Of a stretch of DNA of 64,000 bases, positions 1 through 5,886 are shown piece by piece; within the stretch, counting starts at the first letter, position 1, and each line of letters begins with the position of its first letter. This DNA is from Arthrobacter sp. NIO-1057 (lineage in GTDB: Bacteria; Actinomycetota; Actinomycetes; Actinomycetales; Micrococcaceae). The notes under the pieces were generated by a model. It saw only the letters and a program-made list of their open reading frames with translations. It did not search any database and had not been told where the DNA came from. Location of the stretch: positions 1 to 64,000 of the forward strand of contig NZ_FMAT01000006.1 in the NCBI RefSeq assembly GCF_900094805.1, in the 5' to 3' direction. The position numbers and the translations under genes are program-made.

Positions 1-144
1 AATGCACTGTCCGATCTGGCCCAGGCCCACACCGCCTACGCCGCACCCATCGAGCTAGGAGCCGACGCGGCCGCCGAAGCCCCGGCCACCAGCCCATTCT
101 GCGTCGGCGTTCTCATTGGCGCAACACTGACCGTGGGCTGCTAA
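1..144 (+). CDS. C-terminal part of a putative lanthipeptide (class V-like) precursor peptide
   Basis: The frame is open from the left edge and stops at 142-144, giving the last 47 residues of a protein whose start is outside the window. An Ala/Glu/Asp-rich stretch typical of a RiPP leader is followed by a hydrophobic Ser/Thr/Cys-containing tail, SPFCVGVLIGATLTVGC. The C-terminal Thr-Val-Gly-Cys is the S/T-x-x-Cys arrangement that becomes an aminovinyl-(methyl)cysteine ring when the last Cys is oxidatively decarboxylated. The upstream Ser-Pro-Phe-Cys could form a second (methyl)lanthionine. A LanD-type decarboxylase gene follows after a 93-nt gap, which supports the reading. The cleavage site and leader cannot be defined here. 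A linaridin or another AviCys peptide is the main alternative. Confidence 0.6.
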   Translation, partial: NALSDLAQAHTAYAAPIELGADAAAEAPATSPFCVGVLIGATLTVGC

Positions 145-237
145 CAGCCGCTATTTTCAGCCACTGCGGTGGAGTGCTCGGTTGGCAACGATCAAGCAAT
201 CCACCGCATCGGTCCGCAACTACCACGAAGGAACATC

Positions 238-873
238 ATGACCACCGCACACAGCACCATGCCCGCGCAGGCACTGGACCTGTCGTTAGACAGCTTCGGC
301 TATCGTAAAGTTGCGCTGGTCTTGACAGGTTCCGCCGCGACCCAAGTGATGCCCTTCTGGCTGGACTGGATTCTCGCCGCGGCTCCGCACACGGAGTTCA
401 GGATCATCATGCGCGACTCCGCGAGCCGATTCATCACGCGTCACAGCTTGGAAACGCGTTTGCGTGCTCGCGTGCAGTCCGATCGTTGGGAAGACGAAGT
501 GATCGCTGCGCATGTGGAGCTGGCCGAATGGGCTGACCTGCTGCTGATCTACCCCGCAACCTTGGACTATACATCGCGGCTTGCCCATGGAATCACGGAT
601 TCCCCTTCTTTGCTTGCTGCGCTCAGCACCAGTGCACCAGTGTGCATCGCCCCGTCCCTGCCACCGAGGGCCCTGGCCAACCCGCTGGTCACCGAGGTCC
701 TGGATGCGCTGCGCACTCCGAAGAACTTCGTTGTCATCGATCCCGTGCCAGGCCCCAGTGAATCCAGCGATATCGCGCAAGCGTGGGTACCGCCCCCATT
801 CCCGGCAGTGATGCGCCGCCTGGAATCCGCGCGGCTCGCCAGAACCAACGGTGCAACCGTGGAGAGCCCATGA
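238..873 (+). CDS. HFCD-family flavoprotein, probable LanD peptidyl-cysteine decarboxylase
   Basis: The 211-residue protein starts at ATG 238, with GAAGGA just upstream; an earlier in-frame ATG at 169 has no such site. The N-terminus (VALVLTGSAAT) and the IYPATLDYTSRLAHGITD segment near residues 105-122 match the Rossmann-like homo-oligomeric flavin-containing Cys decarboxylase family (EpiD, MrsD, CypD, TvaF). PATLDY sits where EpiD-type enzymes have PASANT. A candidate catalytic His lies in ITRHSLE, and a Pro-rich loop (APSLPPRALANP) sits at the substrate-clamp position. Family members bind FMN and decarboxylate the C-terminal Cys of a precursor to an enethiol. Position directly after the Cys-ending peptide supports this role over a CoaC-like one. 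Its stop overlaps the next start (ATGA). Confidence 0.75.
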   Translation: MTTAHSTMPAQALDLSLDSFGYRKVALVLTGSAATQVMPFWLDWILAAAPHTEFRIIMRDSASRFITRHSLETRLRARVQSDRWEDEVIAAHVELAEWADLLLIYPATLDYTSRLAHGITDSPSLLAALSTSAPVCIAPSLPPRALANPLVTEVLDALRTPKNFVVIDPVPGPSESSDIAQAWVPPPFPAVMRRLESARLARTNGATVESP

Positions 874-1730
874 GCGCGAGAAACGCGCCCGCATCTGAAG
901 GCTTCAAGGTAGAAACCGGGCTGCTGGCCACAGAAGTCGCCAGTCATGACGACCTGTATTCGTGGAAGCACCGCTTGGGCAAACGTGCCCCGTTGGCTTT
1001 TTCCACCCTCGCACCGGCCGGGCCATCGCACACCACCCCCGATTCGAGCTTGGTCATTTGGGGACGAGGCGACAGCGTCGAACGCAACTACCGGACTCAA
1101 GCCAATTCGACCATGGCAATCCATCTTCTGGATTCCACCCCGGTCAAAATGCGGTCCATTGGAAAGCTCTGGGGCACCGCACTGAACACAGTGCACAAGG
1201 CCCAGCCAGGTTCCCGCGCCTCATTCACGGGTCCTCGCACCCTGCAACGCGCGGCCGCCTGGCTCGACGGTTCATGGCAGCCGGCACGCAACTTGCTTGG
1301 CGCAGCAACCTTGGCCCGATTAAACGATTGGGCTGCTCGAATGAGCGGCGATGAACACCGCGTGCTCGTTCACGGTTGCCCCGGAATGGCCCACTGGGTC
1401 CTGACCGCTGACGCCCGATCTGGCAGCCTGCTGACCGGCGAGGATACCGGCTTTGCGAATCCGGTCTACGATTTCGGTTGGGTTTTGGGGGAAATCGCCG
1501 AAATAAAGGCGTTCCACCCTTTGCTGCTCCCGGATTTGGAGCAGCTGGAACAAGGCTTGCTGGACTGCTTTTCCGCAGTTCACAATCCAGCTGACTTGGA
1601 CTTGGCCCGCGCCTTCCGCCTGGTTCACCACGCGTTCGATTGGCACCACTACGCGGGCGCATCGATTGAACAGTCCACCGTGCTCTTGCGGCTAGCAACA
1701 AATTACATATCCGGCCCGGTAAGCAACTAA
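870..1730 (+). CDS. Aminoglycoside-phosphotransferase-fold protein with degenerate catalytic motifs (putative LanK/LanX-like)
   Basis: The 286-residue protein starts at ATG 870, overlapping the decarboxylase stop. The C-terminal half has the APH/choline-kinase outline: HGCPGMAHWVL near 168-178 aligns with the HGDxxxxN catalytic loop, and LLTGEDTGFANPVYDFGW near 187-204 aligns with the metal-binding (I/L)DW(E/G)DAG..PxYDL region. The catalytic-loop Asp is replaced by Cys, the Asn by His, and the metal-binding Asp by Thr, so phosphotransfer activity is doubtful. Class V lanthipeptide and thioamitide clusters carry APH-like proteins that work with HopA1-type lyases in Ser/Thr dehydration or have undefined helper roles. 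This copy could be a pseudokinase scaffold or cyclase-like factor, and a functional kinase may lie upstream of the window. Confidence 0.6.
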   Translation: MSARNAPASEGFKVETGLLATEVASHDDLYSWKHRLGKRAPLAFSTLAPAGPSHTTPDSSLVIWGRGDSVERNYRTQANSTMAIHLLDSTPVKMRSIGKLWGTALNTVHKAQPGSRASFTGPRTLQRAAAWLDGSWQPARNLLGAATLARLNDWAARMSGDEHRVLVHGCPGMAHWVLTADARSGSLLTGEDTGFANPVYDFGWVLGEIAEIKAFHPLLLPDLEQLEQGLLDCFSAVHNPADLDLARAFRLVHHAFDWHHYAGASIEQSTVLLRLATNYISGPVSN

Positions 1731-1742
1731 CCAGGAAATCAG

Positions 1743-2996
1743 ATGAACTCAACCTCCTTCGAAAGATTCCACGTCCGCAGCGAGACTCTGGAACACGGTG
1801 CCTGCGCTATTGCCGTTCAAAACCCAAAAGCGCGAAACAGCACTTTCGTTCTTGCCATTGCTTCAGGGATGCGCCACGAACAGCCGGGCGAAGAGGGGAT
1901 GATGCACCTGCTGGAACATGTCGTGTACCAAGATAGCGTCGCAATTTCATCCAGCGAACGTCAAACGGGAATGAACAACATAGGCGCTGTCATGGGCGGG
2001 CATACGCACATGGACTACACCGAGTTTTACGAAACAGCTCTGCCCTCCGACCTGCCGGGAATGGTTGCCCGGGTGATTGAACAGGTATTCCATCCGGCGT
2101 TTAATGCAGACCAAATCAAGGCACAGATCCATGCGGTGGCAACCGAACGAGCCCAGCGTTTGGCTCCAGCACCTGGTGGAATCCTTCCATTCCCACATCT
2201 GACGTCCCAATTTTGGGACGATTACGCTCATGGCCACGATGGCACAGGTGACGAAACCCTGTTTTCCAGGGTATCCATTGACCGTCTGAAGGATTTGCAC
2301 GCAAAAAATTACCGTCCTGAACAGGCCGTACTGGTGGCCTTCGGACCACAGGACCCATCCGAAATGCTGCGAATCCTCGCAGAAAACATGGCATCGCTCT
2401 CATTCGCTGAATCTGCGCAAAAATTTGCATCGTCGCACCGCAGCCAAGCCCGCCAGAATGAGGTGAAACACCAACTGATGCCTGTCCCTGGCCTCGCTAC
2501 CAGGCGATTGCTCGCCGCGACCAGTGCTGTGCACGCGCAGTCGATCAGCGCTTCGCTTCTCGGAGATCTACTCGTCGCTTCATTGTTAAGCCTGCAAACC
2601 GGGCTGGATTCCAGCGCCGGAATCTTCGGTCCCGCCGATCTAGTCGAAAACGACCTATTTATCCTGGTAGATGACACCGGCCTCGAACTAGACCCAGCGC
2701 ACAGGCTCCGCGCATTGACCACGGTTGATGATGCCGTTTTGGGGTCGGCGGCGAAAAAAGCACTATTCACCGCAGAAAAATCCGTGCATGACGATGAACG
2801 GCTGGCCCGAACCACTGCCCGCGACATGCTCCTTAGAGGAACGCCTGAATTTGCCCATGAACTCGTAGATCAGCTGAGGCATCTTTCGGATCAGACACAG
2901 CAATTGCGCAGGCTGCTGGAAAGTTCGGCACTTCGTCTAGCTGCTCAGCCATGGCATACCATCAGCGTTGCCCCGACTCTCCAGGAGGTAGCATGA
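1743..2996 (+). CDS. M16-family zinc metallopeptidase, probably RiPP leader peptidase
   Basis: The 417-residue protein begins at ATG 1743, with AGGAAATC upstream. The inverted zinc motif HLLEH lies at residues 55-59, and a Glu in ATERAQR at about 135 is 76 residues downstream, which fits the HxxEH-x(69-79)-E signature of the catalytic M16 (pitrilysin/processing-peptidase) subunit. The protein appears active. The second half shows a Ser/Ala-rich region as in M16 C-terminal domains. It sits 12 nt after the kinase-like gene and overlaps the next gene, so it is part of the same operon. By context it probably removes the leader of the modified peptide or degrades the released leader. No signal peptide is evident, so it should act in the cytoplasm. 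Confidence 0.75.
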   Translation: MNSTSFERFHVRSETLEHGACAIAVQNPKARNSTFVLAIASGMRHEQPGEEGMMHLLEHVVYQDSVAISSSERQTGMNNIGAVMGGHTHMDYTEFYETALPSDLPGMVARVIEQVFHPAFNADQIKAQIHAVATERAQRLAPAPGGILPFPHLTSQFWDDYAHGHDGTGDETLFSRVSIDRLKDLHAKNYRPEQAVLVAFGPQDPSEMLRILAENMASLSFAESAQKFASSHRSQARQNEVKHQLMPVPGLATRRLLAATSAVHAQSISASLLGDLLVASLLSLQTGLDSSAGIFGPADLVENDLFILVDDTGLELDPAHRLRALTTVDDAVLGSAAKKALFTAEKSVHDDERLARTTARDMLLRGTPEFAHELVDQLRHLSDQTQQLRRLLESSALRLAAQPWHTISVAPTLQEVA

Positions 2997-3910
2997 ACGC
3001 CTCGACCCTGCCGATACTGGCAATCCCCGATGATCGATCGCTCTTTCCTGTGCTTTCGCTAGCGTGGCGAACTGACCCCCAGCATGAGCGCGAAGCACGA
3101 GAGCTGCTGGCCAAGGGTCTTGCCCAATCCGACCGGTGGGGCCATCCTTGGCACCAGATCACTGGCGACAGCGGCTCAATGATTCTGACAGTCGCTGCGG
3201 AACAACCACGATTGGAACGCTGGCTACATGCCGTGGCGGATGAATCCTCGCGTGTTAAATCCGGCTCGGTCTCCAAACCGATGATCGCCATGGTCGGAAA
3301 GCTCGCCGGTGCCGAGAACCTCCTCGCCACCGCAACTGATCTTTGCGGGGCGAAGATCTCCCAACCTATGGCTCTGCCCAGCAAGATGCAGCAAAACTCG
3401 GTCGAAGGCTACCAGCGGACGCTGATTACCGGTGAAGACCCAATCCATCATGCAGGCGCGGCCGCCTCATTCTTAGCACTTTGCCTGCTGACCGGAGGGT
3501 CTTGGGCATTGCTGCCCAAGCTGGTGGAAAACCTTGGAAACGCGGCAACAGCCCAGATTTCCAGAAACCTTATACAACGAGGTCCGGCCATTACATGGCA
3601 AGGAATTTGCCAAGGGACAGGCGGGATGCAGGTATTTGAATACCTTGTCCAAGCTTTGCCATCGCAGCTGAAGTCAATCGGTGAGGATCAAGTACAAGAG
3701 CTCAAGCACTTCGGGTTGGCCAACCTAAGCCGTGCGTGGCGCTCACCAACGGAATTGGCGCACACCGCAAGCCAGTACCAGATTATGGGCTGGGGGCCAT
3801 CGCTGATCACCGATGCGCACTCAGAACTTGGCCGAGTGACACGCGACGACCTGGAACACGCGATGGATTGCTTGCTTCGCCCAGTGCTGGAAGTCCTGGG
3901 CCGAAGCTGA
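2993..3910 (+). CDS. M16-like, probably non-catalytic partner subunit
   Basis: The 305-residue protein starts at ATG 2993, inside the preceding stop (ATGA overlap), with GGAGG a few bases upstream; an in-frame ATG at 2951 would overlap the upstream gene by 46 nt without need. There is no HxxEH motif. Length, the tight coupling to an active M16 gene and the general helical composition suggest the inactive beta-type subunit of a two-subunit M16 peptidase, as in mitochondrial processing peptidase and several bacterial heterodimers. The family assignment rests mainly on this context, because sequence similarity is not clear by eye. It ends only 22 nt before the stop of the convergent response regulator. 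Confidence 0.5.
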   Translation: MNASTLPILAIPDDRSLFPVLSLAWRTDPQHEREARELLAKGLAQSDRWGHPWHQITGDSGSMILTVAAEQPRLERWLHAVADESSRVKSGSVSKPMIAMVGKLAGAENLLATATDLCGAKISQPMALPSKMQQNSVEGYQRTLITGEDPIHHAGAAASFLALCLLTGGSWALLPKLVENLGNAATAQISRNLIQRGPAITWQGICQGTGGMQVFEYLVQALPSQLKSIGEDQVQELKHFGLANLSRAWRSPTELAHTASQYQIMGWGPSLITDAHSELGRVTRDDLEHAMDCLLRPVLEVLGRS

Positions 3911-3912
3911 AA

Positions 3913-3949
3913 GGGCGCATCGCGCGCAATTGCTAGACGCGCGGTGCCC
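3913..3949. terminator. GC-rich hairpin between converging operons
   Basis: GGGC...CGCGCG (3913-3926) pairs with CGCGCGGTGCCC (3937-3948) around an 11-nt loop. It lies just after the peptide-operon stop and overlaps the last codons of the opposing response regulator, so it can serve as a shared, bidirectional terminator. There is no clear U-tract. Confidence 0.5.
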
Positions 3950-4604
3950 TCTTGATATCCAGCAGCCCGTATTCCATCGACTTAACAAGGATTTGCACGC
4001 GGTCGCGAACGCCAAGCTTTTCCATCACCTTAACGAAACGCGCCTTGATGGTCGATTCGGTGACGTAGAGTTCCTCGGCCATTTCCCTGTTGCTCATCCC
4101 CTTGCCCAGGAGCAAGATGACTTCAAGCTCTTTGTCGGTTAACGTTTCGGACAGTTCCGCATCCGGCTCAACTTGCGCTGGAATGGAGTCTGCCAACCCG
4201 GAAACTACGTGGCGGGTTACCTCAGCGGAAAGCACTGATTCGCCAGCCATCACCTTGTGAATTGCTTCGGTGATCTCTTTGGGCTGGGCGTCCTTGACGA
4301 GATATCCACTGGCACCAGCACGCAGCAAGTCCACTACGTAGCGGTCCGTCGAAAAAGTACTCAGGCCGAGGATCGCAATATGTGGATTGTCCTGGTGGAT
4401 CTGCGCCGTAGCTGCCACCCCGTCCATGACCGGCATCTGCATGTCCATGAGGATCACGTCTGGCCGCAATCCCGCGGCTTGAAGCACAGCCGCTTTGCCG
4501 TCGGACGCTTCCCCGATAATCTGGATGGTCGGGTCCGAGGAAAGATAGTCGCGCAGAATCTCGCGCGTCAGTGTTTCGTCGTCAACAAGCAAAACAGTGC
4601 TCAA
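3933..4604 (-). CDS. NarL/FixJ-family response regulator
   Basis: The 223-residue protein has an N-terminal receiver domain (VLLVDDE, phosphoacceptor Asp in VILMDMQMP, Lys in YLVKDAQ) and a C-terminal LuxR helix-turn-helix (LTDKELEVILLLGKGMSNRE, then TESTIKARFVKVMEKLGV). The recognition helix carries Ala-Arg-Phe where many relatives have Thr-His-Val. The gene follows its histidine kinase by 46 nt and forms a standard pair with it. It converges on the lanthipeptide-like operon. Whether it controls that operon cannot be told from sequence, but RiPP operons are often paired with such systems. Confidence 0.93.
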   Translation of the reverse strand: MSTVLLVDDETLTREILRDYLSSDPTIQIIGEASDGKAAVLQAAGLRPDVILMDMQMPVMDGVAATAQIHQDNPHIAILGLSTFSTDRYVVDLLRAGASGYLVKDAQPKEITEAIHKVMAGESVLSAEVTRHVVSGLADSIPAQVEPDAELSETLTDKELEVILLLGKGMSNREMAEELYVTESTIKARFVKVMEKLGVRDRVQILVKSMEYGLLDIKRAPRV

Positions 4605-4650: not shown

Positions 4651-5886
4651 CTAGTTTGCCGTGGAAATTCCTTCTAATGGAATTGTGACACTCGTTGTCC
4701 ACAGACCGTCAGATTCGTCTGCTTCGACAAACCCACCGAAAACACCACAACGCGCACGCATGGCCTCCAACCCGGTTCTCGATGACATGATCGGCTTTTG
4801 AACTCCCGCCTCATTCGTCGCCCGGAGCTGGACGTTGCTCTCACCAACATATAAGCGCATTTCTACACGGCTCGAGGGAACCGCGTGCTTAAGAATGTTG
4901 GTTCCCATCTCGCGGATGGTTCTTCGTAGCGCCTGACGCAAACTGGCTGGCACGCGGGCGACTTCACCCTCCACCGTAAGATCCACGTCATAACCTGAGC
5001 TCTGAAGCGCATCGGCCACCGCGTCCAAATCATGCACTAGGCCCACGGCGGTCGTGGTTTCCCCGGAGAGTTCGGCAGGATCGATAATGCTCGGTCCAAC
5101 CGATGTGTTCTCGATGGTTGCTTCCGAGGCTTTGTCTGATTCTTTCAGCAGCAGTACCAGCGAACGAAGGTCCTGCAATGTCTGCTGAGCGGAACTGCCA
5201 ATTCCGGCCAGAATTTCTGAAGTTTTTTCTGGGTCCTTCACGAACTCTGCACGCCGCGCCTGCATCGCGATAATGGTGACGTCATGGGCGACGATGTCGT
5301 GCAGCTCGTGAGCCAATAACGTCCGTTCATTGGCACGAATCTTTGCCTGCTCGATCTCCAGGGCCTCAATCCGCTTGGCGCTGGTTTCATGACGTCGGCG
5401 AAACGAATTCAGACTGAGTCCCGCTGCGCCGGCAAAGGCAACAAAAATGGCGTTGATGACGATTGTGAGCACCTGGACGTCCGGAATCAGGAAGCACAGG
5501 GCAAACAGGAGGGCCAAGGCCAGCAACGGGAGCGACAGCGCTTGCCGCCACGGCAGCAGATAGCAGCAGGCGGAGATTACGACTACTGATGAAAAAATCA
5601 ACCCAGCTATAAGCACCGCTGGCATGCCCAGGGTAGCAATTCCCGCTACACAGAGAAACCACGCGATGGCCGCCGGCAAAACGCCGAGCGACAAAGCAGC
5701 TGTGGGCAAGTAAGGCAACGCCATTTTCAGGGCGCCTTGCTGCCCCGTGAACTGCCCAGAGCCTAGCCCGACTTCCCCCAAATACATGACCAGGGCCAGC
5801 AGAACCGGCACCAAGCGTCCGGCGATGCCTCCGGGCAGCGGTTTAATATCTGCAGTCCAGGCTGTCCACTTTCTCATATTTGACAT
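4651..5886 (-). CDS. Membrane sensor histidine kinase, HisKA_3 type
   Basis: The 411-residue protein has about five hydrophobic segments in its first 150 residues, a short coiled linker, then the dimerisation/phosphoacceptor motif LLAHELHDIVAHDVTIIAM with the active His. The ATPase part has an N-box-like REMGTNILKHA and a G-box SRTGLEAMRARCGVFGG. This is the DesK/LiaS-like group of Gram-positive kinases that sense membrane or cell-envelope state and phosphorylate NarL-type regulators. There is no large extracellular sensor, so it probably senses through the membrane segments. The first ATG at 5886 is used; an ATG three codons later is equally possible. Confidence 0.9.
   Translation of the reverse strand: MSNMRKWTAWTADIKPLPGGIAGRLVPVLLALVMYLGEVGLGSGQFTGQQGALKMALPYLPTAALSLGVLPAAIAWFLCVAGIATLGMPAVLIAGLIFSSVVVISACCYLLPWRQALSLPLLALALLFALCFLIPDVQVLTIVINAIFVAFAGAAGLSLNSFRRRHETSAKRIEALEIEQAKIRANERTLLAHELHDIVAHDVTIIAMQARRAEFVKDPEKTSEILAGIGSSAQQTLQDLRSLVLLLKESDKASEATIENTSVGPSIIDPAELSGETTTAVGLVHDLDAVADALQSSGYDVDLTVEGEVARVPASLRQALRRTIREMGTNILKHAVPSSRVEMRLYVGESNVQLRATNEAGVQKPIMSSRTGLEAMRARCGVFGGFVEADESDGLWTTSVTIPLEGISTAN

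What the first reader, a model, noticed from the sequence alone, without database searches (positions are those of the whole stretch)
1..3910. Class V-like lanthipeptide operon cut by the window edge
Sequence shows a Ser/Thr/Cys peptide tail ending in TVGC, then HFCD flavoprotein, an APH-fold protein, and two M16-type genes, all co-oriented with 4-nt overlaps or short gaps. Known systems: LanD enzymes convert C-terminal Cys for AviCys/AviMeCys rings, and class V/thioamitide clusters pair an APH-like protein with a HopA1-like lyase. The combination with an M16 peptidase pair is, by inference, a compact AviMeCys RiPP system in Micrococcaceae.
Basis: partly seen in the sequence, partly recalled or inferred. 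Interest (0 to 1): 0.72.

Follow-up and report, generated by a model that had tools for sequence, protein, structure and literature searches.

The report
Compact paired-peptide class V lantibiotic cluster
This is the broken-off half of a gene cluster for a small ring-bearing antibiotic-type peptide of a known class; most relatives in sister bacteria encode two matched peptides, which raises the question whether the two act together.

Summary
The window starts at a contig end; the missing half lies at the end of another contig (C6) of the same genome, with a 49-bp exact overlap, and a 98%-identical relative (Glutamicibacter sp. JC586) carries the cluster unbroken. The cassette is ABC transporter T1-T2, kinase LanK (meets NCBI's LxmK equivalog cut-off), HopA1-type lyase LanY, precursor LanA, Cys decarboxylase LanD, LanX, M16 peptidase LanP2 and inactive partner LanP1. 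No LanC or PF00891 methyltransferase match in the genome. So this is a class Va lanthipeptide cluster, a known kind. Leaders follow the genome; cores follow the type across Glutamicibacter, Arthrobacter and Rothia. The boldest reading is a two-peptide class V lantibiotic. Whether this genome has an alpha copy is unresolved: its contigs break inside the precursor gene. No product or activity was tested.

The parts
1..144 (+). 3' part of lanA (precursor, beta type). Start codon lies on contig C6 (L019:12722). Whole product MSTTNALSDLAQAHTAYAAPIELGADAAAEAPA|TSPFCVGVLIGATLTVGC, predicted core 18 aa
   Evidence: 49-bp exact overlap between C6 end and window start; unbroken in JC586 with one base difference; LxmA_leader 17.4 bits, under the cut-off of 25
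238..873 (+). lanD, HFCD flavoprotein Cys decarboxylase
   Evidence: PF02441 E 1.3e-12; NF033753 CypD family 72.1 bits, under its cut-off of 215; alignment A1 finds CypD 6jdd at 7.9e-20
870..1730 (+). lanX, AviMeCys cyclase with kinase fold, without the kinase catalytic Asp (HGC in place of HGD)
   Evidence: best PDB match TvaE-leader complex 8jsu, E 1.1e-8; E211, H254, D257 in 19 of 19 aligned LanX
1743..2996 (+). lanP2, M16B peptidase with active site (HLLEH at residues 55-59, Glu135)
   Evidence: PF00675 E 6.6e-16; motif; PDB chain 4nnz at 1.4e-12
2993..3910 (+). lanP1, M16B-fold partner without HxxEH (inactive subunit)
   Evidence: model pLDDT 85.5, best match a heterodimeric M16 protease subunit; no HxxEH
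3933..4604 (-). LuxR-type response regulator, converging on lanP1; probable regulator of the cluster
   Evidence: PF00072/PF00196; same place in 12 of 12 loci tested, 66.5-99.6% identity (ISL-95 and EpRS71 not tested)
4651..5886 (-). sensor histidine kinase, partner of the response regulator
   Evidence: PF07730 E 2.1e-13; same place in 12 of 12 loci tested, 38-99% identity

Best explanation
A class Va lanthipeptide (lantibiotic-type) cluster. LanK phosphorylates and LanY eliminates Ser/Thr of the precursor; Thr1 and Cys5 of T-S-P-F-C close to a MeLan ring; LanD decarboxylates the last Cys; LanX joins the enethiol to Dhb13, giving a six-residue AviMeCys ring (Thr13-Cys18). LanP2/LanP1 remove the leader after ..EAPA and T1-T2 export the peptide. 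The adjacent two-component system probably controls expression. In this lineage the machinery usually serves two distinct cores of 18 (once 19) residues, alpha and beta, which may act as a pair (odds about 0.4, see the section on the most novel reading). Shown: gene content, order, domains, key residues, conservation of the two core types. Inferred from characterised homologues: every chemical step, the cleavage site, antibiotic activity, pairing.
For: Upstream half and overlap; LanK meets the LxmK equivalog cut-off, matches the LxmK structure 9dk1 at 1.5e-44 and has HGD and DWE motifs; HopA1; LanX fold and residues; no LanC family match in the genome. [quoted passage not shown] Cleavage: the published kebanetide masses are fitted, within 5 ppm and under the modifications I allowed, only by cores starting directly after ..APA in the related cluster of L050. 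Two types: 12 of 13 unbroken relatives have both; leader closer to the opposite type in the same genome, and core closer to the same type elsewhere, in 25 of 25 copies tested.
Against: No product mass or activity. The leader of this genome's precursor scores under the LxmA_leader cut-off (17.4 against 25; 2 of 6 family precursors tested reach it), LanD under the CypD equivalog cut-off. The LanX model has modest TM-scores (0.54) and low confidence around HGC; LxmK, the best match that the rosin paper reports for RosX, is not among the 50 rows shown. Only a beta precursor is seen here, and JC586 has one copy. For pairing: copies are related, so 25 of 25 is not independent evidence; paralogous variants without synergy are possible.
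Confidence: 0.9

Rival explanations
1. Class Va cluster whose alpha and beta peptides are independent variants, each with its own targets, kept by diversifying selection and not acting as a pair.
For: Multi-precursor class V clusters are published (SprA1-A3, RosA1-A3); kebanetides A1 and A2 each have activity alone. JC586 seems to live with one copy.
Against: Two core types are kept across three genera, with beta last before lanD in 12 of 12 two-type clusters, while leaders are homogenised; the sistertide authors infer that both of their peptides are needed.
Confidence: 0.4
2. Thioamitide or other AviCys RiPP cluster instead of a lanthipeptide.
For: Best structural match of LanX is TvaE of a thioamitide pathway.
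Against: LanK meets the class V LxmK equivalog cut-off; in G142 the stretch from T1 to P1 is filled by the assigned genes at the 100-aa limit used, leaving no room for thioamide-forming genes (YcaO was not searched by profile); N-terminal TSPxC ring motif.
Confidence: 0.03
3. The own genome really holds one precursor only; the alpha gene was lost by recombination between tandem copies in the lineage of this genome and JC586.
For: JC586 is unbroken with one copy; joined by the overlap, the own lanY-lanD region has the same 287 bp.
Against: The contig break of this genome falls inside lanA, and C6 end/C11 start is the only exact end-to-end overlap among its unmasked contig ends; other ends there share repeats. 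G. uratoxydans also breaks inside lanA. Both are what collapsed tandem repeats would give.
Confidence: 0.45

Closest known systems
Lexapeptide cluster lxm (class Va)
   Same: LanK/LanY/LanX/LanD set, split M16 pair LxmP1/LxmP2 (passage)
   Different: lexapeptide is N-methylated and reduced (recalled); here no PF00891 match in the genome, no reductase in the cassette, predicted core of 18 aa
Rosin cluster ros (PMC12291118)
   Same: K, Y, D, X, P1, P2, no methyltransferase, Thr-Cys spacing of the AviMeCys ring, (Dhx)2-X-X-Cys ring motif
   Different: ros has the F420H2 reductase RosJ and a third transporter gene; longer core (ring to Cys25); rosins promote cell migration
Sistertide/kebanetide clusters sis, keb (PMC11162475)
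   Same: two precursor types in one cluster; in L050 the same leader end ..APA and T(T/S)PxC start; one maturase set
   Different: one type has three Cys and the cores are 26-34 aa; L050 has a PF00891 methyltransferase, a luciferase-like gene and a fused 875-aa M16 protein
Pristinin A3 (spr) and cacaoidin (cao)
   Same: (Me)Lan ring to Cys5, C-terminal AviMeCys (cacaoidin core ends TASWGC, same Thr-Cys spacing), HopA1 protein, M16 peptidase (passages)
   Different: N-terminally dimethylated, reductase gene, cacaoidin also glycosylated
Two-peptide class II lantibiotics (haloduracin, lichenicidin)
   Same: two different precursors in one cluster
   Different: class II uses one LanM for each precursor (as said in PMC11162475); here one K/Y/D/X set for both

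Membership tests
Class Va lanthipeptide | stand-alone kinase LanK (PF01636) | tested here: met
   PF01636 64.9 bits against 23.2; NF038156 334.2 against 315
Class Va lanthipeptide | HopA1-type lyase LanY (PF17914) | tested here: met
   86.2 bits against 22.7
Class Va lanthipeptide | flavin-dependent Cys decarboxylase LanD | tested here: met
   PF02441 over its cut-off; CypD structure 7.9e-20; under the NF033753 cut-off
Class Va lanthipeptide | LanX: kinase fold without kinase catalytic residues, with conserved Glu/His/Asp | tested here: met
   RosX itself was not in hand, residues matched by motif and spacing
Class Va lanthipeptide | no LanC cyclase | tested here: met
   PF05147: 0 matches at E 0.001 in the own genome
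Class Va lanthipeptide | precursor with LxmA-type leader and C-terminal Cys with Thr five residues before it | tested here: inconclusive
   Cys and Thr met by reading; leader 17.4 bits, under 25, here; 2 of 6 family precursors tested reach it (MYb229 25.6, R. endophytica 26.1)
Class Va lanthipeptide | product with (Me)Lan and AviMeCys rings | not testable with these tools
   needs mass spectrometry and NMR
Two-peptide lantibiotic | two distinct precursors in one cluster | tested here: inconclusive
   12 of 13 unbroken relatives have both; not seen in the own genome, whose assembly breaks there
Two-peptide lantibiotic | synergy of the two mature peptides | not testable with these tools
   needs purified peptides

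The most novel reading that the evidence does not exclude
Micrococcaceae hold a minimal two-peptide class V lantibiotic: one K/Y/D/X enzyme set matures two obligate partners of 18 residues, alpha and beta, with the same ring pattern and without reductase or methyltransferase genes in the cassette; leaders are homogenised within a genome while the two cores are held apart by selection.
Probability: 0.4. Interest if true: 0.65.

Novelty: new variant of a known kind. Interest (0 to 1): 0.42.

Why it matters
Class V lanthipeptides are a recent class with strong Gram-positive activity in some members (massatide A). This family is a very compact form (two predicted rings in 18 residues, no reductase or methyltransferase gene in the cassette), so it could serve as a model for LanX cyclisation and for the split M16 peptidase. 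The paired cores make it directly testable whether class V has true two-peptide lantibiotics, as the sistertide authors suggested from an indirect result. The find also shows how tandem precursor genes may break assemblies and hide partner peptides.

Tried and rejected
Thought of and dropped: (1) the window's APH-fold gene as the dehydrating kinase: dropped because the kinase is upstream and this gene has HGC in place of HGD. (2) A new combination with M16: dropped because lexapeptide and rosin have it. (3) SDR and SnoaL-like genes upstream of T1 as tailoring enzymes: besides the own genome they are found in 4 of the 13 other clusters whose contigs reach there (L020-L023; not in MYb229, G063, PS, three Rothia, ISL-95, EpRS71, G759); the AHSA1-like gene in 4 of 11 tested. 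They read as neighbours shared by the closest relatives; left open. (4) Sequence search of the LanX alignment against PDB chains: no match at E 10; only the fold search helped. (5) Plasmid collection: 7 records with LanD-like matches, all under 60% identity, Streptomyces and Nonomuraea. (6) A LanJ acting in trans cannot be excluded: 13 luciferase-like matches in the genome, none inside the cassette.

Rows dropped before counts: the frameshifted first copy of the Rothia MAG and the contig-cut copy of G. uratoxydans; also the 19-residue alpha of R. endophytica, so its beta had no partner and is not among the 25. Own and JC586 copies are in the clustering but not among the 25. Core comparisons of unequal length were left out of the means. 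G759 was found later and is not in those statistics; it was used as a check of a prediction noted beforehand. In one search precursors were sought by a filter of my own (Cys end, ribosome-site score, motif), which can miss others. Of 19 loci outside the family (L043-L061) 13 gave a LanX match and went into; six did not.
Full report
What is there. The window is C11:1-64000 of a 3.54-Mb, 13-contig genome. The tail is cut because the contig starts there. A HopA1 profile found one place in the whole genome, near the end of contig C6. The last 49 bases of C6 equal the first 49 of the window; no other overlap length from 20 to 119 fits, and this is the only exact end-to-end overlap of 15 bases or more among the unmasked contig ends, several of which otherwise share repeats. 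It is of the window's genus, so the window is taken as Glutamicibacter; other named clusters below were matched to G handles in the same way.

The cassette. In order: T1 (ABC ATPase), T2 (ABC2 permease), LanK, LanY, LanA, LanD, LanX, LanP2, LanP1, then a converging response regulator and histidine kinase. LanK meets NCBI's LxmK equivalog cut-off (334.2 against 315) and matches the LxmK structure sequence 9dk1 at 1.5e-44. LanY has PF17914 at 3.1e-24. An alignment of ten LanD of the family finds the cypemycin decarboxylase 6jdd at 7.9e-20.

LanX. 870-1730 has no Pfam or NCBIfam match at E 1, and an alignment of ten relatives no PDB sequence match at E 10. Its model (pLDDT 74.6, low around the HGC loop) has TvaE bound to its leader peptide (8jsu) as the best PDB match, E 1.1e-8, followed by aminoglycoside phosphotransferases; TM-score 0.54 and rmsd 7.8 are modest, and LxmK is not among the 50 rows shown. 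It has HGC where the kinase has HGD, and no LanX of 19 aligned has Asp there. The rosin paper (first part and passages seen) showed that RosX is a kinase-fold AviMeCys cyclase needing Glu220, His269 and Asp272. Among the 19 LanX (6 of this family, 13 from other actinobacteria) His254 and Asp257, with the same spacing of three, and Glu211 are in 19 of 19, Glu208 in 18 of 19. RosX's own sequence was not in hand, so the correspondence of numbers is by motif.

Peptidases. 1743-2996 has HLLEH and a later Glu; 2993-3910 lacks HxxEH but models as an M16 subunit. This is the active/inactive pair described for LxmP2/LxmP1 (passage of PMC8068269); RosP1/RosP2 are also two M16B peptidases.

Precursor and product. 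The whole LanA is 51 aa with a predicted 18-aa core TSPFCVGVLIGATLTVGC. The cleavage site after ..EAPA is inferred. In the related cluster of L050 (Streptomyces kebangsaanensis SUK12) the published masses of both kebanetides were fitted by one core each, starting directly after ..APA (1.4 and 2.5 ppm; up to two methyl groups and reductions allowed, limit 5 ppm). The paper's strain is DSM42048; that it is the same strain, and that these two genes are its kebA genes, is assumed. The Thr1-Cys5 and Thr13-Cys18 rings follow from rosin and pristinin A3. No PF00891 methyltransferase and no LanC family match at E 0.001 was found in the genome; 13 luciferase-like matches exist, none in the cassette, which in G142 is filled from T1 to P1 by the assigned genes (ORFs of 100 aa or more). 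The L050 cluster has both a methyltransferase and a luciferase-like gene.

The pair. I examined 15 clusters of this family: own, JC586, S41, G142, G254, MYb229, G063, PS, G. uratoxydans, R. endophytica, Rothia sp. P100, a Rothia MAG, ISL-95, EpRS71 and G759. In 13 of 15 lanY to lanD lies on one contig. 12 of these 13 hold both an alpha core (..TLGxGC) and a beta core (..TLTxGC), with beta last before lanD; JC586 has one beta-type copy. One alpha (R. endophytica) has 19 residues, and PS has one mixed copy counted as alpha. G759 was fetched after I had noted the prediction and fitted it. Across 29 precursors, alpha-beta pairs in one genome share 91% of leader and 63% of core residues (17 pairs), same-type pairs of different genomes 66% and 87% (191 pairs), different-type pairs of different genomes 65% and 62% (193 pairs). 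Average-linkage clustering of 28 cores gave the two types without labels (14 and 14), and in 25 of 25 testable copies the leader was nearer the opposite type at home and the core nearer the same type abroad. The copies share ancestry, so these are descriptions, not independent trials. Homogenised leaders fit one shared enzyme set; separate cores fit selection for two products. Four of the nearest clusters outside the family also carry two precursor types, of three and two Cys (L043, L045, L046, L050). The sistertide authors inferred that both of their peptides are needed, because A1 alone was inactive while the crude extract was active (passage of PMC11162475); kebanetides are active singly. 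So the pairing remains a hypothesis.

The own genome. Only beta is seen. The contig break inside lanA, and the same kind of break in G. uratoxydans, fit collapsed tandem copies; JC586's single copy fits true loss. I cannot decide.

Distribution. LanD-family matches, the own genome counted where it is in the set: 8 of 18 genomes of the genus (E 1e-30), 3 of 35 of the genus of R. endophytica (E 1e-50), 4 of 206 of the genus of G063, which holds records named Arthrobacter (E 1e-50), 5 of 396 of the order sample, three of them weaker and of other families (E 1e-30). With LanX, 14 of 395 of a family sample at E 0.001, two of them marginal. S41 and MYb229 are named Arthrobacter in their records but fall in the window's genus here.

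Literature. The rosin paper reports 851 putative class Va clusters in genomes of taxid 1760, so clusters like this may well have been listed there; its tables were not seen. In the held library, Arthrobacter with 'class V lanthipeptide' gave none; Glutamicibacter with 'lanthipeptide-class-v' gave one paper, which names Glutamicibacter only in a reference but lists a class V region in P. nitroguajacolicus SK18 (a Micrococcaceae strain, recalled; passages), so a class V region in the family has been noted. The listings of the Rothia (20 of 29 shown), two-peptide (10 of 11) and Micrococcaceae (15 of 18) searches showed no title or abstract about this family. I opened only some of these papers, by passages, and the library is partial.

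Verdict. The kind is known; the paired, minimal form is a new variant worth testing.

Noticed in passing
L030:8561-9362 (same cluster as L041, Rothia MAG): LanX matches in two pieces in different frames, and the first precursor has a displaced leader; frameshift or assembly error.
   Followed up: no
L027:1-45 (G. uratoxydans contig 31): This contig also starts inside the beta precursor core, a second assembly break at lanA.
   Followed up: partly
L019:6429-8181: SDR, SnoaL-like and AHSA1-like genes beside T1, also found in the four closest relatives L020-L023 and not in the other clusters tested.
   Followed up: partly
L033:9752-9907 (JC586): Single precursor with the short leader of a first copy and a beta core, with Val6 as in some alpha cores; looks recombinant.
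   Followed up: partly
L043, L045, L046, L050: Streptomyces and Actinoplanes clusters carry a three-Cys and a two-Cys precursor type; in L045 and L046 they alternate in several copies.
   Followed up: partly
L039:9432-9599 (Glutamicibacter sp. PS): Third precursor is a mix of the types (beta-like SPFC start, alpha-like TLGAGC end).
   Followed up: no
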